Part shown: positions 2,704 through 34,658 of the stretch, in pieces
How positions within the stretch are numbered: position 1 is the first letter of the stretch
How the letters are laid out: every line of letters begins with the position of its first letter
Origin: Bacteroidota bacterium
GTDB taxonomy: Bacteria > Bacteroidota > Bacteroidia > UKL13-3
Assembly: GCA_030680835.1 (NCBI GenBank)
Contig: JAUXUD010000086.1
Span: 1-64,000, forward strand
DNA length: 64,000 nt
Direction: 5' to 3'
Translations under genes and position numbers: made by a program
Notes under the pieces: model-generated
The model's input: the letters and a program-made list of their open reading frames with translations, nothing else
Databases searched by the model: none
Told to the model about the DNA's origin: nothing

Positions 2704-3609
2704 CTATATTTCTTCATAATACTTGACTAAACCTTTGCAGAATTCTTTGCCTACGGTATCGCCAAATCCTCCCAGTTTCTTTTTCAATATAATTGCTCTT
2801 TCGCTTTGATGAATATCCTTTCTTATGCTTTCAAATAACCTATGATAAAAAGAAATTGCTTGAAATTCACCTATGTGATTATTTAAAAGATCAACATCAA
2901 TAGATTTTGCCGTTAACCAAATTAGTTTTTGATACTTCTTAAGTTTAGCATCACTAAGTGACTCAATTGTAAGTATCTCTTTAACCTCATGATTTCTTGA
3001 ACCGTCGATATCTCGACCAAATGCATGTCCAACTTTATTTCTTAAGTTTCTTATCTTTTCTAAATCGCCAATTTTAAAATTATTTACTGACGTCGTGTCG
3101 CCAAATGTTTTTCTATAAGCATTTACTCTGGAATTCCAATCACCTTTTGTAATTGATGTAATAATGTTTTGGTTAAAGTCACTTTTTTTTGCTCCTTTTT
3201 TTAATAAAACAACACCGTCAATTGATTTGGGTGAGTCAAATAATATTCCTGGATTCGATTCTAGTGCCAACGAAACTACAGTCGCAATATATGTCTCTAG
3301 GTTTGATGAAATAGCCATTAAACTATTTAAATTAACCCAATTATGAAAATTGTTGAATGAATTTGACCAAGATTGTAAATCTAAAAATGCCTCTTCCCCT
3401 TTTGGTACATCAAATTCAAAATATTTAGATGCAGGGTCTGTCCATTTTGCACCAAATAAACCTAGATTTTTATAGATGGATTTGCTAGCACCAGTTTGAG
3501 CCCATGTCATATCATTGAGTTCATCATTATATTTATTAAAAACCTGAAAAGACCAAGTCGATTTGGTTATCGAATTCCAACGATTGAATGTAACTGAGCT
3601 TTTACTCAT
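2704..3609 (-). CDS. HEPN-domain protein, 301 aa (probable RNase)
   Basis: The central segment IRNLRNKVGHAFGRD contains R190-N-x3-H195, the Rx4-6H catalytic signature of HEPN endoribonucleases, set in an all-helical context (residues ~90-240). The Trp/Phe-rich N-terminal ~90 residues and the basic C-terminus have no recognised domain. HEPN proteins act as toxins or as effectors in abortive-infection, CRISPR and restriction systems. The next gene upstream on this strand is the exonuclease-RT fusion, whose stop is 436 bp away across an IS remnant. A shared function is possible but unproven. The same ~150-bp sequence lies immediately upstream of both genes. Confidence 0.65.
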   Translation of the reverse strand: MSKSSVTFNRWNSITKSTWSFQVFNKYNDELNDMTWAQTGASKSIYKNLGLFGAKWTDPASKYFEFDVPKGEEAFLDLQSWSNSFNNFHNWVNLNSLMAISSNLETYIATVVSLALESNPGILFDSPKSIDGVVLLKKGAKKSDFNQNIITSITKGDWNSRVNAYRKTFGDTTSVNNFKIGDLEKIRNLRNKVGHAFGRDIDGSRNHEVKEILTIESLSDAKLKKYQKLIWLTAKSIDVDLLNNHIGEFQAISFYHRLFESIRKDIHQSERAIILKKKLGGFGDTVGKEFCKGLVKYYEEI

Positions 3610-3624
3610 TTTAAAATGGCTTAT

Positions 3625-3900
3625 AATGGCAGACTGTGAAAAGACCTACCTACAATCCGCTTGGTAAATCTTGTGATAATAACTGTTAAAAGCAAATTGT
3701 TTTTGTTTTATTTTTGTAAGACAAAAAACAAAAGACGGAACATATCTCTACTGCTAACCGCAACCAGCTTGAGTTTGACTGCCTTTAAGATTTGATAGAA
3801 AAAGATAACGCTGTTAGATTTATTGAGGTATTGGTAGATAAGCTCGATTTAACAACCAGGGGGTCATTTATTTTTCATAGAATTTATTGAACATGACTTA
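3625..3900 (+). mobile_element. IS1182-like transposase 5'-end remnant (copy A)
   Basis: Reading from 3741 on the plus strand gives ISTANRNQLEFDCL, a stop at 3786, then DLIEKDNAVRFIEVLVDKLDL. This is the N-terminal region of IS1182-type transposases (R-x-Q...D...ED-x-(A/P)-V-R...F-V-D-x-LDL). The coding frame dies after about 45 codons, so this is a relic. Positions 3629-3770 are also about 75% identical, by eye, to 6237-6383 upstream of the RT gene. The rest of this 436-bp gap (3900-4045) holds a GGCTTGGCG...GCGGTTTTCC stretch that may be a very decayed copy of the C repeat. Confidence 0.55.
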
Positions 3901-4045: not shown

Positions 4046-6220
4046 TTAATTCATCATATTATTAATTTCTGAACAAATCATTTTTAATGGATAGTAAGTA
4101 GTTTTTGAGTATATGCCTTTTACTTCTTCCAAGATTTTACCTTTAAACGGAATTTTATTTGCCAAACCTATATCATCAAAAAAATTATAGTGAACTTCCT
4201 TTACCTCATACTCCGCCAAATCCAATGATATATCATTTTTCTTTTTAAAAAGACAGCGCAATAAAATATATTTCTGATATTCGTGCAAGTCATTTGATCT
4301 AAGCAAATCGATTATTGTTAAGTTTGACGCGATACAAGTCTCGTGCATATTTAAGTGTATACCTTCTAATTGGGAATTATCAATATCCATTCGATCTGTC
4401 ACATGAATTGAATTTTTAGCTAAAAATGATAATAATTGTATTGCCATTGCAGTGTAATATTCACTTTTTGGGTAATAAAGAATGACTTTTTTCAGTTTTT
4501 CCACATTCTCTTTTGAGAAAATGGAAATATCAGTGATAAAAAAATCATTTCTAAAATCAGTAGGTTGAGAAAATACTATATTGTACAAATATTTATATTT
4601 AGGATGTTTATTTTGATATTTCTCAACAGAAATTTGAGAGAGCAACAGCTCCTTCAAAAATGATAATGCAGAATCATATGATTCAATTGCATTGCTAAAT
4701 TTCGTTTGGACATTTGAGGCCGAATTATCTTTGGAAATATTGCTTACGGTTGAATCTATATCCGATAACCTAAATACTAAATATGGGTCGGTTGCGCCAG
4801 CCATTACAAGTCTGAAATCCATCTGATTTTGTAAGACATTTTCTCTATGATCCGTAATTATGGTTTTTGAATTGTTTATTTCAAGATTATAACTTTCAAT
4901 TATTTCACGAATTGTTTTAAACTTCTTTCTAGCAGAATTAAATGAATTAGAAAAATATATGAATTCATCAGCAACTCTAATCAAGGAAATCCCGTTTTCT
5001 TCAATCTTATCTGCAATCTTCTCAAGAAAATATTCAGCAAGATATTCATCAGGTTTACTGCCTATTAACAAGCCTTTATCTTTACGTTTAACATTACCAT
5101 TTATGTCCTCAAAAACAACTTTAAGGGAATTGTATAGAACACTTACGAACAAGGATGCTTCATTTAGATTAAGATCATTGCATATTTCAGTAATCAATTT
5201 ATTGTGTTCAATTGATTCATAGCAATTATTAATATCAATTTTCACTACAATTCGATCCCCTTTATTAAAATGGCTTTCACTGAGTTTAACTACTGTATGT
5301 TCATCAAATTTTTCTGTACTTGTAATGAAATTAGTTTTATTCTTTAAATAGTTTACAAGGATATAACGTATTAATACATCCTTAGTCTTTAATGCGGTAA
5401 CAATTCTATTGATTACTTGGTTGTAAGGAATCTCAAAGGCTTTAGCTTTTTCTGATTGATAAAATTTGTTGAAATTATTTTGTATCTGATCCATTACTGA
5501 ATCATCTGAAATTGAGCGAATTTCATTAATATCATAAAATATTGGGTATCTATTTAAATCGGAAATATATGAGGTTACCGCTTTCTTAATTTCTTTGCTC
5601 GTAGGATTTTCAATGTCTGATAGTATGATTGTCCTACATTGATCTATCTGAATAATGCCTAAATCAATAAGTTTAAAGAATGATCTAGAAGTTGTTTTTA
5701 CGTCTTCTAATGCACGATGCGAAATATTTGGGGGAGTTTCAAATAGTATTTCGTATAATTCAGAAAGCTTTGGATATTTTTGATTAGGCAAATCACAATA
5801 AGATGTTGATTCTTTCATAGTACAGATTTGCGCAAACTTTTCTAGTTGAACAGAATAACTATTATTTATTAAATGCGCTTGAATCACACTAGTGTCAAAT
5901 TCACAATTATGAGCTACAACTACAGGATTAAATTTTAGTAAAACAGCAGTAAATTCTTGCAATACAGTTAAAATGGAAACACCATCCTCACTTGCCACCT
6001 CCATTGAAATACCTGTGAGATTTTTAATTTTATCTGATATTTCATATCCAACTGGACTTATCAAAAAGGATTTTTCATTAACAAGATTCTTCCTATCATT
6101 ATATAATTGCCAAGCAATTTCAAGTATTCCTGGCCAATTATCAAAATCCTCCACAGGAGCGTCCCAATCTTTGGGAAAGCCAGTGGTTTCAATATCCAAT
6201 ATCAAATAGTATTGTGTCAT
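4046..6220 (-). CDS. DEDDh exonuclease-reverse transcriptase fusion, 724 aa
   Basis: Residues 1-190 form a DnaQ-type 3'-5' exonuclease with every DEDDh residue present: D9 and E11 (LILDIETTGF), D109 (AHNCEFDTS), H168 and D173 (SHRALEDVK). Residues ~270-470 form a reverse transcriptase: motif A KIDINNCYESI (D329), motif B GLLIGSKPDEYLAEYFL (383-399), motif C RVADEFIYF (415-423) and motif D NLEINNSKTII. Motif C has V-A-D418-E419 where RTs have Y-x-D-D, so the second catalytic Asp is Glu. The C-terminal ~250 residues look helical with no recognised domain, as in defence-associated (UG/Abi/DRT) RTs. Retron, group II and DGR RTs lack a fused DEDDh domain. Antiphage function is inferred from family and context. 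No retron msr/msd-like RNA was seen. Confidence 0.8.
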   Translation of the reverse strand: MTQYYLILDIETTGFPKDWDAPVEDFDNWPGILEIAWQLYNDRKNLVNEKSFLISPVGYEISDKIKNLTGISMEVASEDGVSILTVLQEFTAVLLKFNPVVVAHNCEFDTSVIQAHLINNSYSVQLEKFAQICTMKESTSYCDLPNQKYPKLSELYEILFETPPNISHRALEDVKTTSRSFFKLIDLGIIQIDQCRTIILSDIENPTSKEIKKAVTSYISDLNRYPIFYDINEIRSISDDSVMDQIQNNFNKFYQSEKAKAFEIPYNQVINRIVTALKTKDVLIRYILVNYLKNKTNFITSTEKFDEHTVVKLSESHFNKGDRIVVKIDINNCYESIEHNKLITEICNDLNLNEASLFVSVLYNSLKVVFEDINGNVKRKDKGLLIGSKPDEYLAEYFLEKIADKIEENGISLIRVADEFIYFSNSFNSARKKFKTIREIIESYNLEINNSKTIITDHRENVLQNQMDFRLVMAGATDPYLVFRLSDIDSTVSNISKDNSASNVQTKFSNAIESYDSALSFLKELLLSQISVEKYQNKHPKYKYLYNIVFSQPTDFRNDFFITDISIFSKENVEKLKKVILYYPKSEYYTAMAIQLLSFLAKNSIHVTDRMDIDNSQLEGIHLNMHETCIASNLTIIDLLRSNDLHEYQKYILLRCLFKKKNDISLDLAEYEVKEVHYNFFDDIGLANKIPFKGKILEEVKGIYSKTTYYPLKMICSEINNMMN

Positions 6221-6235
6221 TTAAAGTGTTTACTA

Positions 6236-6383
6236 ATGTCAGCTGGTGAAAAACCTGTCCACAATCCGCTTGGTAAAACTTGCTATAATAATTGATAAAA
6301 GCAAATTTAACAAGATGTATTTTTCTAGAACAAAAAGCAACAGATGGAGTACATTTCCATCGCCAGCCGCACACAGCTTGTGT
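6236..6383 (+). mobile_element. IS1182-like 5'-end remnant (copy B), fused to C repeat
   Basis: Matches copy A almost throughout (shared blocks include ACAATCCGCTTGGTAAA and GATAAAAGCAAATT). Ends in a translated stretch YISIASRTQLVF that parallels HISTANRNQLEF of copy A. At 6384 it switches abruptly to the AT-rich tail of the C repeat. It begins within 20 bp of the start codon of the RT gene, just as copy A begins right upstream of the HEPN gene. Either a degraded IS or a promoter/leader region carried with both genes. Confidence 0.5.
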
Positions 6384-6475: not shown

Positions 6476-6768
6476 ATCACAAAATTCATTATTCAATCTA
6501 AATGCAAAGCTTGTAATAAACAGAAATGTGCTGATAATTTGCCAGGACATTGCCACTAAAATGCCAAAAATTTTCCCTGAGCCTTTGGTGTGCAGTATTC
6601 TCCAAACAAGGCCAGTTAACTATGTTGCTTTTTATTTCGCAAAAATTTCATCTCGTTTCTATTTCGACGCTAAAAGTTTCAACTGTTATCAGTAGAAACC
6701 AGTTACATATCAATCACAAGTAGTTATAATTCGCGCCTGGCTGATACTTGGCGAGGCTGGTAACCATG

Positions 6769-7054
6769 CCGGCATCAATCCAGCACTAATCCATCACCAA
6801 TCTGGCATCAATCCGGCACCAATCCAGCACTAATCCAGCACTAATCTGGTACCAATCCAGCTCAAATCCAACACAAATCCAGCTCAAATCCGGCACTAAT
6901 CCAGGATCAATCCAGCACCAATCTGGCATCAACCCGGCATTAATCCGGCACCAATCCACCACCAATCCACCACCAACCCAGCACCAATCCGGAATCAATC
7001 AGGAACCAATCCAGCACCAATCCGGGATCAATCAGGGATCAATCAGGGATCAAT
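6769..7054. repeat. 11-bp tandem array, 26 in-phase units
   Basis: Exactly 26 contiguous units of 11 bp with consensus CCRGCACCAAT. Variation is confined mainly to positions 3-8 and the CAAT ending is almost invariant. No insertion or deletion disturbs the phase over 286 bp. The last units become CAGGGATCAAT repeated three times in a row, evidence of recent local duplication. Open frames through it exist only because 33 bp is three units. This is non-coding minisatellite DNA. Confidence 0.9.
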
Positions 7055-7254
7055 CAGGCACAAAAGTTATTAATATGTATAAATCTAAGGATGGGAATGC
7101 GTAAAAAATGTCGCTTTTACTGTGCGTTGATGCAGCTTGCATGAATTTGTCCGGTATAATATTAGGGCATACCAGTAATTTACCCTTGATTAGGAACAAA
7201 AAGCGTCAAATTATTCCAGGTGCCAACAATACGCCGCTTATTTGCAAGCATTAA

Positions 7255-7850
7255 CGCCATCTTTGTTCCACCGCTGCAATAATAGTATAGGTAAACCACT
7301 TATTTTGGTTTATGCCGCTTATAAACCGCCGCCGGTAACACCCAAATAAACCGCCATTTTTGTTTTATGCCGCTGAGTGCCGCTTTCAGTATCACCCAAA
7401 AAAGCCGCCAATTTTGCTTTGTGCCGGGTGGCGCTGATTAACGCCGTCAGAAACACCCAAAAAAACCGCCATTTTTGCTTTATACCGCCAAGTACCGCTG
7501 CATCCCGTCGCCAATAACACCCCAAAAAAACGCCAATTTTGATTTATTACGCCAAGTGCCGCTGCATCCCGCCGCCACTAGCACCACAAAAAACCACCAT
7601 TTTTGGTTTATGCCACTGAGTGCCGCCGCCGGTAGCAGCCCAAAATACGCCAATTTTGTTTTGTGCCGGGTGGCGCTGATTAACGCCGTCAAAAACACCC
7701 AAAAAAACCGCCAATTTTAATTTATTCCCCCAAGTGCCGCTGCATCCCGCCGCCAGTTACACACCAAAAAACCACCATTTTTGTTTTATTACGCCGCCAG
7801 TAACACCCTAAAAAACGCTAGTTTTGTATTACGCCGCCGAATGACAGTAC
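7255..7850. repeat. Composite minisatellite, ~53-64-bp units, 242-bp higher-order period
   Basis: A motif CACCCAAAAAACCGCCATTT followed by TTGTTTTATGCCGC recurs at spacings of about 54, 61, 64, 64, 53, 61, 64 and 43 bp. A higher-order repeat is visible: GTGCCGGGTGGCGCTGATTA at 7421 recurs at 7663, exactly 242 bp away, with matching flanks. GCC-rich blocks alternate with A6-7 and T5 tracts. Translated frames (65-80 aa) in both strands are repeat artefacts. Confidence 0.85.
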
Positions 7851-8293
7851 CTTTATACTAAATTTTGGTTGGTTCGCTGGGCTATTAGCGTTAATTGAGG
7901 CATTTCTTCTACAACATTTGAGCTTTTATTGTCTTTTTGAAAAATATTTGCCCGCCATGCAAACGTGTATGCCGGGCATGTAAGCCACAATTTTGGTGCC
8001 CTGTCAAATATTCTTATTTCCCATCCGTTGCCCACTGCCCACCCATGGTTCACCCAAGGCCCACCCAAGTCCACCCATTGTCCGCCCACAGCTTGTCCGG
8101 TCATGCCCTGACCACGAATTTTGTCATATATTTCCCATATTCCGACGCCTGTAAACTGCAAATAACTTCTCACCATAGTATCTATTGCAATCGGTATAAA
8201 TGCAGAGTATGCAAGCCAATACACCAAGAAAAGCCTAAATAAACCTAAATTTTAGGAAGGTGCAATGTCCATTTGCTTACTGGAGGGGGAAGA
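7851..8293. other. Gene-poor spacer between arrays
   Basis: A 124-codon minus-strand frame (7853-8227) and a 101-codon plus-strand frame overlap here. Neither has a recognisable domain, a Bacteroidota-like composition, or a start context. Between 8036 and 8095 a degenerate CCCACCCA(T/A)G-type repeat runs on the plus strand, apparently another decaying minisatellite. A short stretch around 8110-8240 translates on the minus strand as a membrane-like segment (LAYSAFIPIAIDTMV) that could be a gene scrap. Confidence 0.4.
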
Positions 8294-8576
8294 GTGGGTG
8301 GGGTGGGTTTACTTGGTGGGCGGGGTGGGTTTACTTGGTGGGCGGGGTGGGTTTAATTGGTGGGCGGGGTGGGTTTTAATTAGTAGGCTCGGTGGGTTTA
8401 CTTAGTGGGCGGGGTGGCTTTAATTGGTGGGCGGGGTGGGTTTACTTAGTGGGCGGGGTGGGTTAAATTGGTGGGCTGGGTGGGTTTAATTGGTGGGCGG
8501 GGTGGGTTTAATTGGTGGGCTGGGTGGGTTTAGTTGGTGGGCGGGGTGGGTTTAATTGGTGGGCGGGGTGGGTTTT
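8294..8576 (+). repeat. 22-bp G-rich tandem array, 13 units, G-quadruplex-type
   Basis: Units of consensus GGTGGGTTTAATTGGTGGGCGG repeat with starts at 8302, 8324, 8346, 8368, 8391, 8413, 8435, 8457, 8479, 8501, 8523, 8545 and 8567: twelve intervals, eleven of 22 bp and one of 23. Each unit joint contains GGTGGG-C-GGGG-T-GGG, so the plus strand has G-run spacing suited to intramolecular G-quadruplexes throughout. The TTTAATT/TTTACTT spacer varies while the G blocks are conserved. Confidence 0.9.
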
Positions 8577-8789
8577 GGCAGTGGGTTGGTGTTATTTAGG
8601 CAAAACAGCTTGAACCAGCGACTATTTTAGTCAGGTTACCACTGATTTGAAGAGGTGAAACAGTACTTGATGTGGAGATGTTATGTCAGAATAAAGATTT
8701 TGTTTAAGTCTCTCATAATTATTTTTTATTTCCTCATATATAGCAATTCCTAAAATTGCATTTCATAAAAAGTATAGTTGTTGGTTTAA

Positions 8790-12533: not shown

Positions 12534-12637
12534 CAGTAAACAAAAGCTTGTTGGCTTGAGGTGGCTAAGTGGCTCTCTTTCGTTATCAAAACTATGATTA
12601 TTTTATAAGTTACCAAATGGAAGTTTAAAATTCTTGT
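12534..12637. repeat. Dispersed repeat, copy C3
   Basis: Contains TTGGCTTGAGGTGGCTAAGT, then the tail TTATCAAAACTATGATTATT and GGAAGTTTAAAATTCTTG, matching C1 but ending before the TGCGGTTTTC block. The tail overlaps the 3' end of the truncated T9SS gene (12603-12905), where it supplies the final residues KNFKLPFGNL. Confidence 0.55.
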
Positions 12638-12905
12638 TAAATTCTATAAAAAAGTTATCTGTCACCGGGTTAGGATAAATACTAAATGAAGTATCATTAA
12701 TAAGTGTATTTATACCTACAGTCGAAGAAAGAAATAATGTGTCGCTTCCACTTATAGTTGTATTTGTACACTGTGACAAGTTTTCAACCTTTACGGAGTC
12801 GACAGTCAAACTTGCTCCAGTTCCTACAAAACTGATTTGATAACTCTGTCCATTGACTTTTGTCTGTGCAAAAATCACTAAAAATAAAAGAGTAAATTTT
12901 CTCAT
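12603..12905 (-). CDS. Truncated T9SS-sorted secreted protein, 100 aa
   Basis: Signal peptide MRKFTLLFLVIFAQTKVNGQ, then a short beta domain (YQISFVGTGASLTVDSVKVE) found at the start of many Bacteroidota cell-surface proteins, then FSIYPNPVTDNFFIEFN. That last stretch is the beginning of a type A T9SS C-terminal sorting domain, which is normally ~80 residues. Here it breaks after about 17 residues, and the last 10 are encoded by the C3 repeat. The product would probably not be sorted, so this is best read as a gene truncated by the repeat. Intact relatives carry long beta-rich regions before the sorting domain. Confidence 0.6.
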   Translation of the reverse strand: MRKFTLLFLVIFAQTKVNGQSYQISFVGTGASLTVDSVKVENLSQCTNTTISGSDTLFLSSTVGINTLINDTSFSIYPNPVTDNFFIEFNKNFKLPFGNL

Positions 12906-14581: not shown

Positions 14582-16447
14582 TTAATCACTAAGAGTAAAT
14601 AAAACATCGATATCGTCAAATGGAGTTCTCAAATAAATGCCGGATTTTAAATTTATTTGATACGATTCGTAGCCGTTTTTAGCAAGAATTGATTCGTCAG
14701 TCAATAATGAGACCTTATTAATTGATCGAACACCCCAACTTCCTCCGCCCCCCATTCCTTCCGGTATCAGGACGACAAAATATTTGCCTTTTACCTTGTC
14801 AAAACACACCGCAGGGCCGGCAAAACAATACCCAATTTTATAAGTATTGTTTTCCACAATTTGGTCGTACTCAAATTCAGCCGAAAACATGTCATCATTG
14901 TAATACAAAAAATTAATCGAACCTTCCTCATTTGTATAAAAGGAGCGATTTTCTATAATCCATTTTTCTATATAATTTTCAAACGCATCGATATTATAGT
15001 TTATTGGGGTTTGATAAATATTTTTTGATGATGATGCATGTGTCTCTATTATGCCAAGGTATTCTGCGTTACCCGTTTTAGCGAATTCCTTAAAGTCAAA
15101 TTCACCTTCTATTTTATTTCCCCGGTATTTACCAAAATAAGTAAGTTTGATATATTCGTTAATTGAAAAATCAAAAATTCCAAATTCTAAACATCCAAGA
15201 CTTTCAGTAGCATTTCCCACACTATGAATTACCCGTTCAATATAAAACATCGTTTTTTTATGATGGGTTACGATTTGACTTTCACTAACATCAGCAAAAC
15301 ATCCAAATTCATCCAAAGTCTTATCAAATTCCAATTGCCACCTTTTTGCAAACATTTTAAGAATACACAAATGTTGCTCTGGAAGATAATCTTCTTCACT
15401 TTTATTGCATATACCAACGATATATTCAGTGCTGCCAATTCTGGCATAATGGGCCACTACAGGTTTGAATTTTATGGTATCAATAAAGTAACTTTCAATT
15501 TCATTTTTAGATGGTTGTGATAATTCATATACTGGTTCTTTTGTGGTTGTATCATCTGATGTTTCATAATTTGATTTAGCCATAATTAAATTTTCCAATG
15601 ATTTAAGAAATTCGTCAATTTGCCTGGTCAATTCCGAATAATAAATATTTGCTATAAATAAAGAATCCTTATAATGGTCATGAAGTTTCATTAGATCAGA
15701 TTTGGTATTGATCCTAAGTTGTTGAGTATTTGTATGAATGAAACCTACATCATAACGCATTGGCGGTATAATAATAGGAATAACATTGCTGTTCAAAACC
15801 CAAGAAGCGCCCATTTCATTTAGACAGATTTCGCTTTCTTTATAGTTTTGTGAAATCAACTGAATAACAGCCTTGCAATTACATAATTCGAATTTTATTT
15901 TGCTTTTAAAGTCATCGCCAGACTTAATTCCCATCCCATCAACACTTGTACAAAAGATATCTTCATTTTTAACTTTTAAACCAAGAACTAAGATTCTATC
16001 AATAAACAGTTTAACAATTTCAGCATCTTTACTTGAGTGGCTAATAAATATTTTACCAGATTCTATCCCACATGGAATCGTTTCAGCAATAAATTCTTCT
16101 TTCATACTTCCCCAATCCTTCCCTTTCAAAAAATTATCGGTCACATTAGCACCTAAATCACGTAATAATTCTTCGCTTAATCGGCCATTCTTACCATATA
16201 ATCTTATGTACTTTACAATATTGAACTCAATTTCTGCCTGTTCTATCCCGAGCGATTCTATTCTACTTATATCATAGATATTAAAACAGAGAGGATTTTC
16301 AATATTAACTGTACCCCCTTTAATTCGTGCCGTTTTCTTTCCTTTCAAAAAAGATTCAACCAATCTTTTAATTTGCTCCTCACTTAATGCAATTTTATAA
16401 ATTGGATGGCCTGCATTGTCTTTTATGTATAGATTATAAAAAGTCAT
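14582..16447 (-). CDS. TIR-domain protein with unknown flanking domains, 621 aa
   Basis: Residues ~131-290 are a TIR domain: KIFISHSSKDAEIVKLFI (132-149) is strand A plus helix A, and KAVIQLISQNYKESEICLNE contains the C-x-x-E motif with probable catalytic Glu211, followed by MGASWVL and VIPIIIPP. Bacterial TIRs of this class hydrolyse NAD or make cyclic ADP-ribose signals. The N-terminal 120 residues (YNLYIKDNAGHPIYKIALSE) and the C-terminal ~310 residues (beta-rich, ending FDDIDVLFTLSD) are unrecognised and could be sensor domains. It is the last gene of the minus-strand restriction operon, 21 bp after the GIY-YIG gene. Confidence 0.75.
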   Translation of the reverse strand: MTFYNLYIKDNAGHPIYKIALSEEQIKRLVESFLKGKKTARIKGGTVNIENPLCFNIYDISRIESLGIEQAEIEFNIVKYIRLYGKNGRLSEELLRDLGANVTDNFLKGKDWGSMKEEFIAETIPCGIESGKIFISHSSKDAEIVKLFIDRILVLGLKVKNEDIFCTSVDGMGIKSGDDFKSKIKFELCNCKAVIQLISQNYKESEICLNEMGASWVLNSNVIPIIIPPMRYDVGFIHTNTQQLRINTKSDLMKLHDHYKDSLFIANIYYSELTRQIDEFLKSLENLIMAKSNYETSDDTTTKEPVYELSQPSKNEIESYFIDTIKFKPVVAHYARIGSTEYIVGICNKSEEDYLPEQHLCILKMFAKRWQLEFDKTLDEFGCFADVSESQIVTHHKKTMFYIERVIHSVGNATESLGCLEFGIFDFSINEYIKLTYFGKYRGNKIEGEFDFKEFAKTGNAEYLGIIETHASSSKNIYQTPINYNIDAFENYIEKWIIENRSFYTNEEGSINFLYYNDDMFSAEFEYDQIVENNTYKIGYCFAGPAVCFDKVKGKYFVVLIPEGMGGGGSWGVRSINKVSLLTDESILAKNGYESYQINLKSGIYLRTPFDDIDVLFTLSD

Positions 16448-17609: not shown

Positions 17610-20600
17610 TTAACTATTATACTTCTTAAAATTCTCCGCCTGTTCAAAAATTTCTTTATAAACCTCATCCCGATCAACAGGTGGGTAATCGTTTTCGGCC
17701 AGAAGGATGATGAGGTCAGCTTTGAGTTCTGCTTTCAGGTCGTCTCGTTTGCTCCAGTCTGTGTAACGGGCTTTGTCATCAACTACTGTTTTAACTTTTT
17801 GGGCCAGTGTTACCAATTTATCTTCCGGGTAAATGAAATCGTACTTGATTGTTAGGGCTTTCAGGATATCATAAAAAGCCTTTTCTTCAAAGTCTATTCC
17901 CAGGTCTTTAAAAGAGTCCTTCTCTTTCTTTAATGAATAAAACAAATCAATAATCTCGTCTGTAAAGTCTTCTAAAACCTCACTTCTCAGGGTGTCGGCT
18001 TCATCTCTTTCATTGTATTTTTCAACGAGTTGTTGCATGCGTTTCGAAAAATCAACACCCATCATCCGGTTAACTTTTTTAATTTCATCTATTGCTCTGG
18101 ACAGCAACTTTTGCAAGAGTTTTATTTTAGTATGCGGTAATTTAATTTTGTCAATCTTGGCCAGGTAATCTTCGTTAAAGAGATCAATTTGCACAGCACT
18201 TTCTTCACCCAATTTATAAATCTCTTCTACGCCTTCACTTTCAATGGCTTCTTCAATCATTTTCCTTACTCTGGCGTTCATTTGAGAAATATCGGGGGCA
18301 TTCCCTTTCGTTAATTTAAAAACAATGGACCGGATTGCAAGATAGAAATGGATATAATCCCTTTCTAACGGTTCAAAGGAGTCGCCTCCTACGCAAATAT
18401 CATAGGCCGCTTTCATGCGTTTGGCAATATACATAAACCGCTTTTCGAGTTCCTGTGTGAGTTGAACAAATTCAGCACCCATATTCAAGGTATGCAGTTG
18501 TTCTAGTGGGGCCCCTTTAAAGTATTTGGATGAATCAAATTTGTGAAAAATCTTGTGGAGCAAATCCAATTGGTCTTTTACCACTACCACCGATTGTTCA
18601 ATTTCTTCAAAATTTTGGCTATCGGTTTTATTAAATTGTGCAAGTGCCAGATTCATTTGTTTTTTGATACCAATATAATCTACTACCAGGCCTTTTTCCT
18701 TGGTTTCAAACTTGCGGTTAACCCTTGATATGGTCTGAATCAGATTATGTCTTTGCAGGGGTTTGTCAATATACATGGTATCCAAAAAAGGAATATCAAA
18801 TCCGGTAAGCCACATATCTACTAAAATGGCAATCTTAAAATTAGATTTTTCAGTTTTAAACTGCCGGTCCAGTTCCTTTCTGTCGGCACTGGTACCAAGC
18901 ATTTTGTGTAAGTCGTCCGGGTCATCTTTGTCACGTGTCATTACCATTTTAATACGTTGCATGGGTTTCACTTCCTGCATCTCACGTTCAGTTAACTCCG
19001 CACCCTCTTCACAAACTTTTATTTCGGCCCATTGCGGACGCAGTTCAATAATGTTTTTATAAAGGTCCCAGGCAATGGTTCGGCTGCTGCAAACAAACAT
19101 GGCCTTGCCTTTTATGCTAGCTCCTTCTGAAACGCGCTTTTCATAGTGTTCAACAAAATCTTTTGCAACATCTTTTAACCGGGCCGGATCACCAATAATG
19201 GCATTCATTTGTGCCATGGCTTTTTTGCTTTCCTCAATCTGATGTTCGTTGCTGCCTGCGTCTGCACAAAGATTATAATAGGCTTCTATTTCTTGAAGTT
19301 TGGCATGATTCAATAACACCCTGGCAGCCCTGCCTTCATATACAATGCGTACTGTTATATCGTCCTTCACCGACTCTGTCATGGTATAAGAGTCGATTAC
19401 CCCCCCAAATACATCAATGGTAGCATCAATGGGTGTACCTGAAAAACCCACGTAAGTGGCATTGGGCAATGAATCGTGAAGGTATTTGGCAAAGCCATAG
19501 GTTTTTGTTACCCCACCCACACCCGTGCTTATTTTCTGATCCAGGTTGGTCTGACTCCGGTGTGCTTCATCCGAAATGCAAATAATATTGCTCCGGTCAC
19601 TGAGCAATTGTATGTCTTCGTTAAATTTATGGATGGTGGTTAAAAATACACCTCCGCTTTTTCGTTCTTTTAACAATTCACGCAAATTATTCCTGCTTTC
19701 AACACTTACCACGGTATTATCGCCAATAAAGGCTTTGGCATTGGTAAACTGTGCCGAAAGCTGATCATCCAGATCATTCCTGTCAGTAATTAAAATAATG
19801 GTGGGACTTGAGAAATAAGTGCTTCTCATAAGCAGACGGGTAAGGTACAGCATAGTAAAACTTTTACCACAACCCGTGGCACCAAAATAAGTGCCTCCTT
19901 TACCATCTCCATCAGGACGTTGATGCAAACGAATATTATCAAAGAGCTTTTTAGCTGCATAATACTGCGGATAGCGGCAAACTATTTTTTCGTTCTTTTT
20001 AGAACTGTCCGGTAAAAAAATAAAGTTCTGAATAATATCCCGCAAGCGACCGCGGTCAAACATTCCCTGAACCAATGTATAGAGCGATTCAATGCCGTCA
20101 ACATCCTTTGCAAGCCCTTCCACCCGGCGCCAGGCGTAATAAAATTCGTATGGTGCAAAGTACGGCCCCGCCTTATTATTGGCGCCATCACTAATCACGC
20201 AAAAGGCATTGTATTTAAACAGCTCCGGAATATCGCGCCTGTAACGAACGGTTAATTGAATATAAGCATTGTGAATGGTGGCTTCTTCGCGGATGGCAGA
20301 TTTAAACTCAATAACTACCAAAGGGAGTCCATTAATGTAAACAATAACATCCGGTATCCGGGTACTATAACCGCTAATTTCAAGTTGGTTTACAACCTTA
20401 ATAATATTGTTATCCGAAATACTTTTCTCCTGATCTTCTATAAGGATGCTGCTCAAAAATTGTTCGTCCGGCTGCTTATTGCTGGATATATCACTGTAAT
20501 CAATCAGTTGTATGTATAAGTCCTTTTGTGTTCTATCTTCACGTTTAAGCAAAAATCCATCCGAAACCAATTTCATGATCGCCTTATTGCTTTCATACAA

Positions 20601-20822
20601 ATCGGAAGAAGGAAAACTTTCGAGTTTTCTGATGATGCTGTTGATTTCAACATCCGTAATATTTTCAAGCGCATATCTGTAATAAAGAAAGTCCCGGAGA
20701 TCTTGTTTAATCAGAACTTCGTCAGAAGTGCGTGCAATATCCTGACCAAATACATGGGGCATTCCTTCTTTGCCCAGCAAATCAATAAAAGCCTGCTCTA
20801 ACTGTGATTCGGTAAACTTCAT
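17610..20822 (-). CDS. hsdR: Type I restriction enzyme R subunit HsdR, 1070 aa
   Basis: Residues ~150-180 carry the nuclease motif: PDVIVYINGLPLVVIEFK with D158, E172 and K174. The SF2 translocase follows: Walker A FGATGCGKS (313-321), ISDEAHRS (417-424) and GFSGTPI. Late motifs MWLTGFDIP and QTISRVNRKF are clear. The C-terminal ~250 residues are the helical domain that docks to the methyltransferase. Length is normal for HsdR. It cuts unmethylated DNA at a distance after ATP-driven translocation. Its start codon overlaps the stop region of the AlbA_2 gene at 20822, so it is cotranscribed although five kilobases from hsdM/hsdS. Confidence 0.95.
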   Translation of the reverse strand: MKFTESQLEQAFIDLLGKEGMPHVFGQDIARTSDEVLIKQDLRDFLYYRYALENITDVEINSIIRKLESFPSSDLYESNKAIMKLVSDGFLLKREDRTQKDLYIQLIDYSDISSNKQPDEQFLSSILIEDQEKSISDNNIIKVVNQLEISGYSTRIPDVIVYINGLPLVVIEFKSAIREEATIHNAYIQLTVRYRRDIPELFKYNAFCVISDGANNKAGPYFAPYEFYYAWRRVEGLAKDVDGIESLYTLVQGMFDRGRLRDIIQNFIFLPDSSKKNEKIVCRYPQYYAAKKLFDNIRLHQRPDGDGKGGTYFGATGCGKSFTMLYLTRLLMRSTYFSSPTIILITDRNDLDDQLSAQFTNAKAFIGDNTVVSVESRNNLRELLKERKSGGVFLTTIHKFNEDIQLLSDRSNIICISDEAHRSQTNLDQKISTGVGGVTKTYGFAKYLHDSLPNATYVGFSGTPIDATIDVFGGVIDSYTMTESVKDDITVRIVYEGRAARVLLNHAKLQEIEAYYNLCADAGSNEHQIEESKKAMAQMNAIIGDPARLKDVAKDFVEHYEKRVSEGASIKGKAMFVCSSRTIAWDLYKNIIELRPQWAEIKVCEEGAELTEREMQEVKPMQRIKMVMTRDKDDPDDLHKMLGTSADRKELDRQFKTEKSNFKIAILVDMWLTGFDIPFLDTMYIDKPLQRHNLIQTISRVNRKFETKEKGLVVDYIGIKKQMNLALAQFNKTDSQNFEEIEQSVVVVKDQLDLLHKIFHKFDSSKYFKGAPLEQLHTLNMGAEFVQLTQELEKRFMYIAKRMKAAYDICVGGDSFEPLERDYIHFYLAIRSIVFKLTKGNAPDISQMNARVRKMIEEAIESEGVEEIYKLGEESAVQIDLFNEDYLAKIDKIKLPHTKIKLLQKLLSRAIDEIKKVNRMMGVDFSKRMQQLVEKYNERDEADTLRSEVLEDFTDEIIDLFYSLKKEKDSFKDLGIDFEEKAFYDILKALTIKYDFIYPEDKLVTLAQKVKTVVDDKARYTDWSKRDDLKAELKADLIILLAENDYPPVDRDEVYKEIFEQAENFKKYNS

Positions 20823-22237
20823 TACTTTTTCTTTTTACGAATTTTCCAATAGCCTCTGGTACCCCCAATTCTTACCAAATACCCTTTTTCTTTCAGTTGT
20901 TCAATGTGCTTTAATATGGCAGATTCGTTAATACCTAATGTATCTGAAAGACCCTTTCTGGAAATTTTATTATTCTCTTGTAATATTCTTAATATTTCAA
21001 TTTGCCGCTTTGGTAAACCATCTATTGCACCACCTATTGCATCCTCGATTGCACCACCTATTTGACCACCTATTTGACCACCCATTTGACCACCTATTTG
21101 ACCACCTATTTGACCACCTGATAAATTTTTCTCATTTCCCTTCAAACCCGCTACCGGAGCGGTACTTGGAAAACTCATTCTTACAAAGTTATCTGTAAAC
21201 TTAAAACAATCTCTGGAATAGCTTTCCAATATGCGTGGTACGCCTGAACCTAAATGTTCTACTAAATCCAGGTCCTTAAAAATGCGCATGATTTCTTTGT
21301 TGCGCGGCACCGAAAATCCTACAAAAAACTCTTCCTGGTTCATGCCTTCCGGTAAACCACCGGCAGAGGTGATTTCTATTCTATCTGCAAAAAATTCAAA
21401 CTTGGGCGGCACTTCATTGGAATAATCATTATGTACAAGTGCATTAATTACTGCCTCGCGCAAAGCGATGGGGTCCCAAAGGCGTGTGGTTTTTCTTTCT
21501 CTGGAAGTGATTTTAGTAAGTGTTTTATTTTCCAGGTCCATCTTGTCCAAAACTTGTTTGGTTGCTTTTACCAAAGAGCAATGGCCAAATTCATTGCTTT
21601 CAATCAGATCAACCCGGTTCAGGCCTTTGTATTTGGCCACTTTAATGGAGGTATTGTTTATATCAGCCAACAGGTAAGCAGCATAATTATACTTTTTATC
21701 TTCGGTTAGCAATTCGAGGTTAGCGGCGAATTTGCTGTTTAATTTAACTCCGGTTCCCTCGTAATAAATTTTGAGTTGGTTAAATTTTAAATCCTGCCGG
21801 GCCGATTGTATTTTACCAATAGAGTTCCGGGTTCTTTTGGAAAACAGGCGCTCAATCATTTTATTGGGCATGGGTTCTGCGGCAGTGCCTATGCGGATAT
21901 AACAACCCCGTTCACTCATTCCCTGTTTTTTAATATAGTAAGGCTTCTCCGGACCGCTGGCAATATTTACCTTAATGATATCCTTCCCCTTTTTGGTTTC
22001 AAGCACCACCTCAAACAAACCCATACAGGAAGGTGAAATATTATTCTTGAGCCTATCCTTAATCTTAAGCATATCTCCATCCGCATCCTTCACACCAATG
22101 GCCTTACCGGTTTTATCTATACCAATATACAAAACCCCACCCTCATGGTAATTTAAAAAGGCAATCACTTCCTTTTCCAAACCCTCGGTGAGTTCCTGTT
22201 TGTATTCTATACGGTTGGTTTCGGTCATTGTTTTCAA
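20822..22237 (-). CDS. AlbA_2 / RecG-like (Schlafen-type) protein with GGQI repeats, 471 aa
   Basis: N-terminal AlbA_2 domain: RIEYKQEL..., EVIAFLNYHEGGVLYIGID and the GCYIRIG element. The middle matches the HATPase_c_4 region seen in COG2865 proteins: LREAVINALVHNDYS and HLGSGVPRIL. Then a linker of repeated G-G-Q-(I/M) units, about five GGQ units then GGAI, from a 12-bp DNA repeat. A C-terminal winged helix follows (ISRKGLSDTLGINESAILKHI). Such proteins are frequent companions of type I RM loci and are thought to regulate or assist them. An alternative start at 22228 is equally plausible. Confidence 0.75.
   Translation of the reverse strand: MKTMTETNRIEYKQELTEGLEKEVIAFLNYHEGGVLYIGIDKTGKAIGVKDADGDMLKIKDRLKNNISPSCMGLFEVVLETKKGKDIIKVNIASGPEKPYYIKKQGMSERGCYIRIGTAAEPMPNKMIERLFSKRTRNSIGKIQSARQDLKFNQLKIYYEGTGVKLNSKFAANLELLTEDKKYNYAAYLLADINNTSIKVAKYKGLNRVDLIESNEFGHCSLVKATKQVLDKMDLENKTLTKITSRERKTTRLWDPIALREAVINALVHNDYSNEVPPKFEFFADRIEITSAGGLPEGMNQEEFFVGFSVPRNKEIMRIFKDLDLVEHLGSGVPRILESYSRDCFKFTDNFVRMSFPSTAPVAGLKGNEKNLSGGQIGGQIGGQMGGQIGGQIGGAIEDAIGGAIDGLPKRQIEILRILQENNKISRKGLSDTLGINESAILKHIEQLKEKGYLVRIGGTRGYWKIRKKKK
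21053..21119. repeat. In-frame 12-bp tandem repeat (GGQI codons)
   Basis: ACCACCTATTTG is repeated five times plus a partial unit, with one unit differing by a single base (CCCATTTG). Because it is 12 bp, copy-number change would alter the interdomain linker length without a frameshift. Confidence 0.9.
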
Positions 22238-24536: not shown

Positions 24537-25754
24537 TCAGTTTTCTATGGTTGCAAGTTTTGAGAGTAATAAATCTTTCATTGACGATAAACAAGCATTT
24601 TCTTTTTCAGTATTTAAAATTGAACTATACAAACCTTTTGTAGTGACGTCAAACTTCAAGATTAAATTTTCAATTGGTTCAATAATTTTTTGTCCATCAA
24701 AGTCACGGGTCACTAAAGCACTGAATACAGCACCTGTTGCTTCATTTTTCAATCTGCTTATTGTGTCAATAGTTAATTGATGAGCAAAGAATTTTGAATT
24801 TCTTTTTGTGTCATTAATTGCATAACAACTTTGATTCATTGCCATTGCACGACCTGCGATTGCTATTGCTCCAACAGTCCCCCTGGCTGTTACAAAAATT
24901 GTATCCTTCGGATATAATTTACTGCTGCAATTTTTCAAACCTTTTTCGGTTATTGTTTTTTCAGTCGTGATTGAATAGTAGCTTTCAGAAACATCAGGTG
25001 GAGCAAAAAAAGGAATTTCACCACCCCAATATTTTTCATTGGTTGTATCAGGTGTTCCACCACCTCCAAGATTTAAAACTTGTGTAAACGATTTAACTTC
25101 CCAACCAACTGGAATTTCTTTTTCCAATTCATCACTCATTTCCATCTCCCCACCACTACTCTTATAAGGCTTCCCATTCTCATCCGGAAATTCAAAATCC
25201 ACAAACCACTGCTTATAAATTGCCTGGGCGGTTTCTTCTAATTTTTGAATGAGTTTGTTGTTGAGTTCAATGCGGTTTACAATGGTATTGTATTCTTTAA
25301 CTATTTCCTTTTGTTTGAAAATGGAAGGCACTGGAATTAACGTTTCACAAAGTGCTTCCCAGTCATACCCACCTCGAATTGCGGCATCACACTTAAAAGT
25401 TGCATATCTATCAAACTCTGGTCTGCGAAACCACATCATTAAATATTCCGGATCAAGGGTTTCCTTGTTAACTACTTCAAATACTGGATATGCAGGCGAG
25501 ACTATATTTGGTTCATCATCCATTTTTAAAACAACCGGCAATTTATTTACACGAATGGGCGACATAAAGTCACAGGCAAATTGCCATTTTTTCATAACCC
25601 TATAAACTGACATATCTGTGCCAACAATATTTGAAGTTGTTTCCCTAAATTCTTTGGTCATGCTTAACCCTAAAAGTTTTGTTACTTTCAGGTCGGAGTT
25701 TCTTTTTTCAACTCTTGTAATATAGCTTCCAATTGGTTTATAATTTGATTTCAT
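24537..25754 (-). CDS. hsdS: Type I restriction specificity subunit HsdS, 405 aa
   Basis: Two target-recognition halves are visible. The C-terminal one starts IPVGWEVKSFTQVLNLGGGG with TPDTTNEKYWGGEIPFFAPP, the standard HsdS TRD opening. A conserved helical spacer (NRIELNNKLIQKLEETAQAI, then YKQWFVDFEF) separates them, and the C-terminus ends in a second helix. The start overlaps hsdM by 17 bp. HsdS sets the DNA sequence recognised by the methyltransferase and nuclease. The first half starts without the usual TRD opening and is somewhat divergent. Confidence 0.9.
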   Translation of the reverse strand: MKSNYKPIGSYITRVEKRNSDLKVTKLLGLSMTKEFRETTSNIVGTDMSVYRVMKKWQFACDFMSPIRVNKLPVVLKMDDEPNIVSPAYPVFEVVNKETLDPEYLMMWFRRPEFDRYATFKCDAAIRGGYDWEALCETLIPVPSIFKQKEIVKEYNTIVNRIELNNKLIQKLEETAQAIYKQWFVDFEFPDENGKPYKSSGGEMEMSDELEKEIPVGWEVKSFTQVLNLGGGGTPDTTNEKYWGGEIPFFAPPDVSESYYSITTEKTITEKGLKNCSSKLYPKDTIFVTARGTVGAIAIAGRAMAMNQSCYAINDTKRNSKFFAHQLTIDTISRLKNEATGAVFSALVTRDFDGQKIIEPIENLILKFDVTTKGLYSSILNTEKENACLSSMKDLLLSKLATIEN

Positions 25755-27318
25755 ACCCCAATTCTTTAAACACAGTTAACAATTCCTTTTTAGATTTATC
25801 TTCGGCCTTTAACAAATCTGAAAATTCCATTTGCAGGTTTTTCATTTTCTCATCAAAATCAATATTCTCATCACGGTTTATAAACTCAATGTATTTGCTC
25901 GGTACGAGCGAAAAATCTTTTTTGGAAACTTCTTCGAACGAAGCAGAGTAGCAAAATTCGGATGTATTTGCATAAGAATTTTCAAAATTATCTTGCTGCC
26001 AGTTGTGGTAGTTTTCAGTTATCTTTTTAATATCATAAGCCGAGAATTGAGTGTATTTTTTTTCAAATGGTTCTCCTAATTGGCGTAAATCCATAAACAA
26101 TACTTCGCGTTCCCGGTTACGGTATTTCTTAATGATATCATTTATTTCAATGGTTCTGGCCTTCTTATTTTTATTTAAAATCCAAAGGGTAACACTAATG
26201 TCAGTAGTATAGAACAAGTTTCTTGGCATCACTAAAATTGCCTCCACCAAATTATTTTCAATGAGCTTTCTGCGTATTTTATATTCTTCACCTCCGCCAC
26301 TCAAAGCGCCATTGGCCAGAATAAAACCCGCTACACCGTTTTCCGATAATTTACTGGCTATATTTAAAATCCATGCATAGTTGGCATTGCCAGTTGGTGG
26401 CACTTCATAACCCCGCCAACGTGGATCATCTTTTAATTCATTTGCAGCTCTCCAGTCCTTTTGGTTAAAGGGCGGATTGGCCATTATAAAATCAGCTTTT
26501 AAATCGGGGTGTTGGTCGCGGCCAAAAGTATCTGCCGGAACCTCTCCCAGGTTGGCTGCAATACCCCTTATGGCCAGGTTCATTTTTGCCAGTTTGTAGG
26601 TAGTTGCTGTGTATTCTTGTCCGTATATCGAAATTTCTTTTTTGTTTCCATGATGACTTTCAATAAACTTTACCGATTGCACAAACATACCACCCGAACC
26701 ACAAGCAGGATCGTAAATAATTCCCTTATAAGGTTCAATCATTTCAGCTATTAAGTTTACGATACTTTTGGGCGTATAAAACTCTCCCTTACCCTTTCCT
26801 TCAGCCAATGCAAACTTGCTCAGGAAATATTCATATACCCGGCCTACAATATCCTGCTGCTTGTCTTTTATTGTATCAATATTGTTAATGGTATCCAATA
26901 AGGCTGCCAGCTTACTCACATCCATATTGAGCCTGGAAAAGTAATTATCCGGTAAAGCACCTTTAAGGGACGGATTGTTTTTTTCGACAGTATGAAGGGC
27001 CGTATCAATTTTAAGGGCAATATCATTTTGTTTGGAGTTCTGAATAATATATGTCCAGCGGGCTTCTTCTGGCAGAAAGAACACATTATTCATATTATAA
27101 AATTCTTTCATCTCCAGATATTTTTCCTTCTTTTCGGCTATTAGCTCCTTCCTGCGTTCTTCAAATTTATCGCTGGCAAATTTTAAAAATATCAAACTAA
27201 GTACTACATGCTTATACTCAGATGATTCAACTGTACCACGAAGTTTATTAGCGGAATCCCAAAGGGTTTCTTCGATGCTGGATTGTTTTTTCGGTTTTGC
27301 TTGTTTGCTGATAGACAT
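25738..27318 (-). CDS. hsdM: Type I restriction DNA methyltransferase HsdM, 526 aa
   Basis: N-terminal HsdM_N region (SIEETLWDSANKLRG, VVLSLIFLKFASDKFEER), then GEFYTPKSIVNLIAEMI, SAM motif DPACGSGG (203-210) and catalytic NPPF (281-284), marking an N6-adenine methyltransferase of the gamma class. Length is normal. First gene of a nine-gene minus-strand run through the TIR gene; its promoter should lie in 27319-27400, where TGTAAACTTG on the minus strand is close to the Bacteroidota -7 box. Confidence 0.95.
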   Translation of the reverse strand: MSISKQAKPKKQSSIEETLWDSANKLRGTVESSEYKHVVLSLIFLKFASDKFEERRKELIAEKKEKYLEMKEFYNMNNVFFLPEEARWTYIIQNSKQNDIALKIDTALHTVEKNNPSLKGALPDNYFSRLNMDVSKLAALLDTINNIDTIKDKQQDIVGRVYEYFLSKFALAEGKGKGEFYTPKSIVNLIAEMIEPYKGIIYDPACGSGGMFVQSVKFIESHHGNKKEISIYGQEYTATTYKLAKMNLAIRGIAANLGEVPADTFGRDQHPDLKADFIMANPPFNQKDWRAANELKDDPRWRGYEVPPTGNANYAWILNIASKLSENGVAGFILANGALSGGGEEYKIRRKLIENNLVEAILVMPRNLFYTTDISVTLWILNKNKKARTIEINDIIKKYRNREREVLFMDLRQLGEPFEKKYTQFSAYDIKKITENYHNWQQDNFENSYANTSEFCYSASFEEVSKKDFSLVPSKYIEFINRDENIDFDEKMKNLQMEFSDLLKAEDKSKKELLTVFKELGYEIKL

Positions 27319-34437: not shown

Positions 34438-34658
34438 AAAAATAGGATTTATAATTTGCGAACATACTGCGAACAAAATTTAATGTTCATTTTATAAAAG
34501 GGTTGAATCCTTTTATAAACGCGAACATTTATGCGAACAAAGATATGTTTTTTATGGATATCTTGGTATTTTTTTGTTTTTTACGTACATTAAGGCATCC
34601 TTCCTAACAGCTTGAAAATTAACATAATAATTTGATTTATAATTGATTGCAAGTAATT

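What the first reader, a model, noticed from the sequence alone, without database searches (positions are those of the whole stretch)
4046..6220. DEDDh exonuclease fused to a reverse transcriptase with a VADE catalytic box
All five DEDDh residues are intact (D9, E11, D109, H168, D173), while the RT domain has motif A Asp329 but motif C reads V-A-D418-E419 instead of Y-x-D-D. That pairs an apparently active 3'-5' exonuclease with an altered polymerase. It may proofread or degrade its own product, make only short or untemplated products, or sense nucleic acid. From memory, the known DRT/Abi/UG, retron, DGR and group II RTs are not described with this domain order and this motif, so it may be a new class of defence RT.
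Basis: partly seen in the sequence, partly recalled or inferred. Interest (0 to 1): 0.88.

Follow-up and report, generated by a model that had tools for sequence, protein, structure and literature searches.

The report
Exonuclease fused to UG34-like reverse transcriptase
A bacterium, probably of the Bacteroidota, carries one protein that joins an intact DNA-erasing enzyme to an odd, virus-defence-type DNA-writing enzyme; no other copy of this pairing turned up in the searches made, and it may make a DNA product and destroy it unless a virus interferes.

Summary
ORF 4046-6220(-) is a 724-aa protein with an intact DEDDh exonuclease (D9, E11, D109, H168, D173) followed by an RT with motif A Asp329 and motif C V-A-D418-E419. 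The exonuclease is of the proofreading family fused to DnaE-like polymerases. The RT and C-terminal half is most likely a deep, very divergent sister of the putative defence-RT group UG34: in a 66-RT alignment an acidic residue replaces the motif-B serine here and in 6 of 6 UG34-type RTs but in 0 of 59 others. Plain score margins over group II and CRISPR RTs are small or reversed. UG34-type relatives have no exonuclease and read x-D-D; Glu419 is unique (1 of 66). The first motif C Asp is kept in all 66, so the polymerase is altered, not plainly dead. No second copy of the fusion was found in the searches made. Best reading: a single-protein 'writer-eraser' RT in an island with defence genes, whose own 3'-5' exonuclease removes its DNA product until infection blocks it, as host ExoI does in trans for DRT9. 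Function is inferred, not shown. New variant of a known kind.

The parts
4046..6220 (-). Exonuclease-RT gene, 724 aa; ATG about 10 nt after the upstream repeat element
5636..6220 (-). DEDDh 3'-5' exonuclease domain, residues 1-195 (catalytic D9, E11, D109, H168, D173)
   Evidence: invariant residues; model and Foldseek; PADLOC DEDDh 76 bits
4811..5569 (-). RT N-terminal region and palm/fingers, residues 218-470
   Evidence: RVT_1; alignment with UG34-type RTs
5234..5236 (-). Motif A catalytic Asp329
   Evidence: D in 66 of 66 aligned RTs
5048..5050 (-). Motif B: acidic Asp391 at the usual Ser position, shared with UG34-type RTs
   Evidence: acidic here and in 6 of 6 UG34-type RTs, 0 of 59 others
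4964..4975 (-). Motif C V-A-D418-E419
4049..4810 (-). C-terminal domain, residues 471-724, mostly helical in the models, aligned with the UG34-type C-terminal domain
   Evidence: low-confidence models; K543, Y648, Y651 invariant in 7 rows; profile match there weak
6231..6310 (-). Repeat element A immediately upstream of the start codon; found in front of other accessory genes of this genome
6383..6465 (-). Second upstream repeat (copies at 1253-1335, 89-100%, and 12578-12660, 67%)

Best explanation
It is most likely a UG34-related, putative defence-type reverse transcriptase that has gained a proofreading-type DEDDh 3'-5' exonuclease at its N-terminus. Proposed working: the RT half extends a DNA 3' end (template and primer unknown) and the tethered exonuclease trims or erases that DNA, so little product accumulates in a healthy cell. 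Infection tips the balance, by a phage protein that caps or binds the 3' end, inhibits the exonuclease, or raises dNTP levels, and the accumulating DNA then stops the cell or the phage. This would put in cis the control that host ExoI exerts in trans on DRT9. Shown by sequence: intact DEDDh set, RT motifs with D329 and D418, landmarks shared with UG34-type RTs, other defence genes in the island. Inferred: both activities, their coupling, the trigger and the defence role.
For: Exonuclease residues invariant and DnaQ fold. Motif A Asp and first motif C Asp kept, 66 of 66. UG34 kinship: acidic motif-B residue shared only with 6 of 6 UG34-type RTs, 0 of 59 others, and sister place in the tree, 88.7/73; 28 invariant columns over residues 233-651; best RT model in PADLOC, 72 bits. 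In print, 3'-5' exonucleases or end-protecting phage proteins control DRT output: ExoI degrades DRT9 poly-dA and T5 gp58 protects it (PMC12483538, passages); ORF55 protects the DRT4 product (PMC13213688, passages); RecBCD restrains DRT3 (PMC13174585, passages). Island with type I R-M and a TIR/SpbK-like gene.
Against: One copy in one genome, so nothing shows that both domains are kept by selection. Glu419 may weaken or abolish synthesis. UG34 kinship rests mainly on one residue and a long-branch tree: a single-sequence search ranks a CRISPR-type RT above the UG34 member (48.5 against 32.2 bits); the best domain with my UG34 profile is 54.0 bits against 52.2 for group II and 49.8 for CRISPR RTs; the best RT model in NCBIfam is group_II_RT_mat, 69 bits of the 300 needed, and the best RT hits among solved structures are of group II or CRISPR type. 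The defence role of UG34 is itself a database label. The RT half could not be modelled. Upstream folding is ordinary (z -0.63). On re-checking the profile margins I lowered this confidence from 0.40 to 0.37.
Confidence: 0.37

Rival explanations
1. The RT half is catalytically dead or nearly so (VADE) and acts as a nucleic-acid-binding sensor or scaffold; the DEDDh exonuclease is the effector that degrades phage or host nucleic acid.
For: Exonuclease fully intact while Glu419 is unique among 66 RTs. 3'-5' exonuclease domains are fused to other enzymes in bacteria, e.g. DinG (PMC12345164, listing and abstract start only).
Against: Motif A Asp, first motif C Asp, the motif B glycines and the L-x-x-N-x-x-K-T segment are kept; a long-dead polymerase would be expected to lose some of them.
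Confidence: 0.22
2. A proofreading RT: the exonuclease corrects errors during templated cDNA synthesis, as in replicative polymerases.
For: The exonuclease is of the family fused to DnaE-like polymerases, 35-40% identical in the top rows. A PrimPol-RT hybrid with proofreading exonuclease activity is reported (Kim et al. 2025, title seen in a reference list).
Against: No template RNA was found: no Rfam match over threshold in the window and ordinary folding of the 250 nt upstream. Class 1 UG/Abi RTs are described as untemplated (PMC12632851 and PMC13174585, passages), but I could not check the class of UG34.
Confidence: 0.17
3. A recent chance fusion that is decaying: Glu419 is a degenerative mutation and the gene has little function.
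For: No second copy in the searches made (with 72, 86, 103, 114); one-base change; long branch.
Against: 724 codons without a stop at 29% GC; all five exonuclease residues and the main RT residues intact.
Confidence: 0.15

Closest known systems
UG34 reverse transcriptases (PADLOC RT_UG34, PDLC03773)
   Same: RT and C-terminal domain align with 28 invariant columns in 7 rows; acidic residue at the motif-B Ser position; same 32-residue motif B to motif C spacing as P0002 (counted by hand).
   Different: No exonuclease in any of 6 UG34-type RTs; motif C ends in D-D in all 6; only about 18-26% identity; 63 bits here against 504 for a clear member in the same search.
N-terminal 3'-5' exonuclease of DnaE-like polymerases and related stand-alone exonucleases
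   Same: 35-40% identity in the top rows, same catalytic residues and N-W-P block.
   Different: Fused here to an RT, not to a family C polymerase; the own genome shows no such DnaE fusion at this similarity.
DRT9 and DRT4 defence RTs
   Same: Proposed logic: RT product kept low by a 3'-5' exonuclease until a phage protein protects it.
   Different: There the exonuclease is a separate host enzyme; here it is in the same chain. DRT9 uses a ncRNA, none was detected here.
DRT7 (UG10) PrimPol-RT
   Same: Multidomain defence RT with a reported proofreading exonuclease activity (title in a reference list).
   Different: The partner is a PrimPol, not a DEDDh domain; no Drt7 model is among the 25 of 28 PADLOC matches shown.

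Membership tests
DEDDh (DnaQ) exonucleases | D-x-E, D, H-x4-D catalytic set | tested here: met
   D9, E11, D109, H168, D173 invariant in 14 and 10 rows
DEDDh (DnaQ) exonucleases | DnaQ fold | tested here: met
   pLDDT about 95; 8h2f first, TM 0.84 by target
UG34 RTs | Profile score in the range of members | tested here: not met
   63 bits against 504 for L065; 62.8 bits, best domain 54.0, with a 6-member profile
UG34 RTs | Nearest RT group in a tree | tested here: inconclusive
   Outside UG34 (99.6/99) but its sister, support 88.7/73, long branch, 40 sequences
UG34 RTs | Acidic residue at the motif-B Ser position (a marker found here, not a published definition) | tested here: met
   D391; 6 of 6 UG34-type, 0 of 59 others
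UG34 RTs | Motif C ending D-D and no added N-terminal enzyme (as in the 6 seen) | tested here: not met
   VADE and an N-terminal exonuclease
UG/Abi (DRT) RTs | RT palm followed by a helical C-terminal domain (recalled) | tested here: inconclusive
   Helices only in low-confidence models; C-terminal profile matches 11.1 and 4.5 bits
UG/Abi (DRT) RTs | Anti-phage activity | not testable with these tools
   needs phage challenge
Group II / CRISPR RTs | Maturase or Cas1 domain | tested here: not met
   Pfam shows only RVT_1 and an exonuclease; group_II_RT_mat covers residues 241-469 only, 69 of 300 bits needed; the RT-core similarity itself is close to that of UG34

The most novel reading that the evidence does not exclude
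A self-contained writer-eraser immune enzyme: one chain both synthesises a toxic DNA and erases it with a tethered DEDDh exonuclease, so that the exonuclease is a built-in antitoxin and a phage sensor, with the VADE active site tuned to slow or untemplated synthesis.
Probability: 0.26. Interest if true: 0.86.

Novelty: new variant of a known kind. Interest (0 to 1): 0.6.

Why it matters
Recent work shows that 3'-5' exonucleases of the host decide whether some defence RTs become toxic. A natural fusion of such an exonuclease to an RT would make that logic testable in one protein by separate point mutations, would be a ready example of an RT with an editing domain in cis, and would give a handle on the UG34 group, for which I saw no experimental paper.

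Tried and rejected
UG34 membership: rejected as stated, kept as likely sister group. A first 'UG34' profile was contaminated by CRISPR-type RTs and discarded; it was rebuilt from 6 sequences. Integron: the upstream repeats recur in front of varied genes, but no integron-integrase match passes the cut-off of 265 bits; the best is one ORF on contig C71 with two pieces of 120 and 93 bits, which by inspection I took for an ordinary tyrosine recombinase. I could not define attC boxes; left open. Upstream ncRNA: no Rfam match over threshold in the window; 48 of 200 shuffles fold at least as well. RT structure: not obtained. RT-motif searches of contig collections: one hit and 78 hits, none an RT at the matched place; 52 hits, 2 of which hold an RT ORF by phmmer; none confirmed or none found. 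The first scans used rare exact 8-mers and say little.

Limits: genome contigs was scanned only for close copies and for a D-E motif C at exact spacing, so fusions with D-D there were not excluded. The genome search scored at most 2 candidates per genome, 4 and 3, and its genome sets overlap. The 66 RTs were collected with this protein and the UG34 model as queries, not drawn at random. The labels group II, CRISPR-RT and DGR are mine, by inspection and recall. The main UG/Abi survey (10.1093/nar/gkac467, recalled identifier) and the PrimPol-RT preprint are not held.

Full report
Observation. The 724-aa ORF at 4046-6220(-) is real: the longest open frame in 500 base shuffles of the region was 166 codons. 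Its start fits the conserved start of the exonuclease family. Pfam finds RVT_1 (E 9.7e-13); the exonuclease is weak in Pfam (DNA_pol_A_exo1, 0.023, below cut-off) but clear in PADLOC (DEDDh, 9.4e-22) and PHROGs (DNA polymerase exonuclease subunit, 2.4e-28).

Exonuclease half. Its best relatives in 395 phylum genomes are the N-termini of ORFs of about 1400-1600 aa and exonucleases in ORFs of about 190-290 aa, 35-40% identical in the top rows; 137 of 395 genomes, the own one included, have a match at E 1e-20 or better. The large ORFs read as DnaE-like polymerases by inspection. The own genome has only one other match, E 8e-4. Relatives also occur in 68 of 50,697 phage records; 13 of the 20 listed are annotated as a DNA polymerase or exonuclease. 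All five DEDDh residues are invariant in 14 and 10 aligned rows. AlphaFold2 models residues 1-195 at about pLDDT 95 and Foldseek ranks DnaQ first; by sequence profile the PolC-type exonuclease 2p1j is first.

RT half. It is the only RVT_1 match of this genome at E 0.01 or better. Among PADLOC models RT_UG34 is the best RT match, 72 bits. A clear UG34 member (P0002, locus L065) scores 504 bits with the same model in a genome search, this protein 63. Five more UG34-type RTs (L380-L384) came from 164 genomes of the order of that genome; they were assigned by similarity to P0002 (E 2e-98 or better), not by the PADLOC model. In an alignment of 66 RTs the motif A Asp and the first motif C Asp are present in 66 of 66; the fourth motif C residue is Asp in 64, Asn in 1 and Glu only here; the usual motif-B Ser is acidic only here and in the six UG34-type RTs, Ser in 58 and Ala in 1. 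In a tree of 40 of those sequences this protein is sister to UG34 (SH-aLRT 88.7, UFBoot 73; UG34 alone 99.6/99) on a very long branch; an earlier tree of 35 sequences with one UG34 member gave the same pairing at 89.5/93. Twenty-eight columns, from Glu233 to Tyr651, are invariant between this protein and the six.

Results against that placing. A profile of the six scores 62.8 bits on this protein, but its best domain is 54.0 bits, close to group II (52.8 in all, best domain 52.2) and CRISPR-type RTs (50.7, 49.8); another UG set gave 38.6 and two sets nothing. phmmer with the RT half alone ranks the CRISPR-type L091 (48.5 bits) above L065 (32.2), whereas pairwise BLASTP gives 50.4 bits for P0002 and 48.1 for the RT-Cas1-like L089. 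NCBIfam's best RT model is group_II_RT_mat, 69 bits against a cut-off of 300, and group II or CRISPR RTs lead among solved structures. The C-terminal part matches the UG34 profile only weakly. I therefore call it a likely, not a proven, sister of UG34. The RT half could not be folded (pLDDT under 50 over nearly all of it).

Is the fusion found elsewhere? No second copy was seen: own genome, 395 phylum genomes with the full protein and with the RT part (55 of 395, own included, have some RT match), 117 relatives, 385 class genomes, 164 genomes of another order, 64 genomes of its own order with a 7-row profile. tblastn of 72,556 plasmid and 50,697 phage records found no place covering 80% of the protein. 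Of 218 confirmed viral-contig relatives of the exonuclease the best 80 were kept, and none of their ORFs matches the RT half. Of 73 distinct RT ORFs in the genome-search loci that I tested, none carries the exonuclease. A DNA pattern for motif B plus a D-E motif C hit 78 stretches of the 84,980-genome collection; by phmmer with this RT half none is an RT at the matched place (one RT ORF lies elsewhere in L158). Limits are given under Tried and rejected.

Motif C. Tyr to Val and Asp to Glu leave one of the two neighbouring carboxylates as Asp and the other as Glu. From recall, family A DNA polymerases read x-H-D-E at the corresponding place, so an Asp-Glu pair can serve a polymerase. The likely relatives have D-D, so Glu looks derived; whether it is adaptive cannot be told from one sequence.

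Surroundings. Bases 1 to about 34,500 look like an island: a phage-integrase-type gene (33160-34476) lies near its end, next to a small gene and a mutS-like gene (35393-37996, by inspection); inside are a type I R-M system (hsdR 17610-20822, hsdS 24537-25754, hsdM 25738-27318), a TIR gene with SpbK similarity (14582-16447) and a Schlafen/AlbA_2 gene (20822-22237). These lie 8 kb or more from the exonuclease-RT gene. That gene starts about 10 nt after an 80-bp repeat. In the stretches I fetched because they match it, the repeat has 18 copies at E below 1e-4, two of them in the window; in 16 of 18 an ORF starts 6-193 nt beyond it, and in two the mechanically longest ORF overlaps it. This looks cassette-like; no integron integrase passes its cut-off.

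Mechanism. Papers read in passages show that 3'-5' exonucleases keep DRT products in check: for DRT9, ExoI degrades poly-dA, T5 gp58 protects it, and no transformants of a strain without ExoI were obtained with wild-type DRT9; ExoI was already known to be essential with UG17 (PMC12483538). ORF55 protects the DRT4 product (PMC13213688 and PMC13314766); RecBCD restrains DRT3 (PMC13174585). A DnaQ-type exonuclease joined to a UG-type RT fits that logic in cis. This is inference. The rivals (dead RT with exonuclease effector, proofreading RT, decaying fusion) are not excluded.

In print. In the titles and abstract starts listed by searches I saw no DEDDh/DnaQ-RT fusion and no relevant paper naming UG34. 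Subscription papers and most preprints are not held, among them the main UG/Abi survey, so this is weak evidence of novelty. myRT's table links UG9 RTs to PRK14975 in 94% (PMC8934634, passage); that PRK14975 is an exonuclease/polymerase is recall. That the host is one of the Bacteroidota is inferred from named records with similar exonucleases; the genome itself is unnamed.

Noticed in passing
window 6231-6310 and 3622-3701; loci L134-L144: An ~80-bp repeat (consensus about AAATTTGCTTTTACCAATTATTATCGCAAGTTTTACCAAGCGGAATGTGGATAGG) lies before unrelated accessory genes of this genome: 18 copies in the stretches fetched. Of the 16 genes outside the window five were scanned: rifampin ADP-ribosyltransferase (Arr), M28 peptidase, ParA-like, TMEM175, DUF2441. 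Cassette-like, but no integron integrase over cut-off; only 22-39-nt pieces in 5 of 97 other relatives; no plasmid match at E 1e-5.
   Followed up: partly
window 2704-3609 (-): 301-aa protein with an RNKVGH (RNxxxH) motif as in HEPN RNases (motif recalled); no Pfam, PADLOC, NCBIfam, PHROGs or PDB match. It has the same upstream repeat as the exonuclease-RT gene.
   Followed up: partly
window 6719-7088, 7326-7823, 8256-8608: Three different tandem-repeat arrays (11-, ~64- and 22-bp units) follow each other upstream of the exonuclease-RT gene.
   Followed up: no
L065, L380-L384: UG34-type RTs have Asp/Glu in place of the motif-B serine, 6 of 6, absent in 59 other RTs; I saw no test of its effect.
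   Followed up: partly
L233 and L234/L236: Viral-contig open frames of 732 and 744 codons that start with the same exonuclease domain and have a further unidentified C-terminal part; no match to this RT half by phmmer.
   Followed up: no
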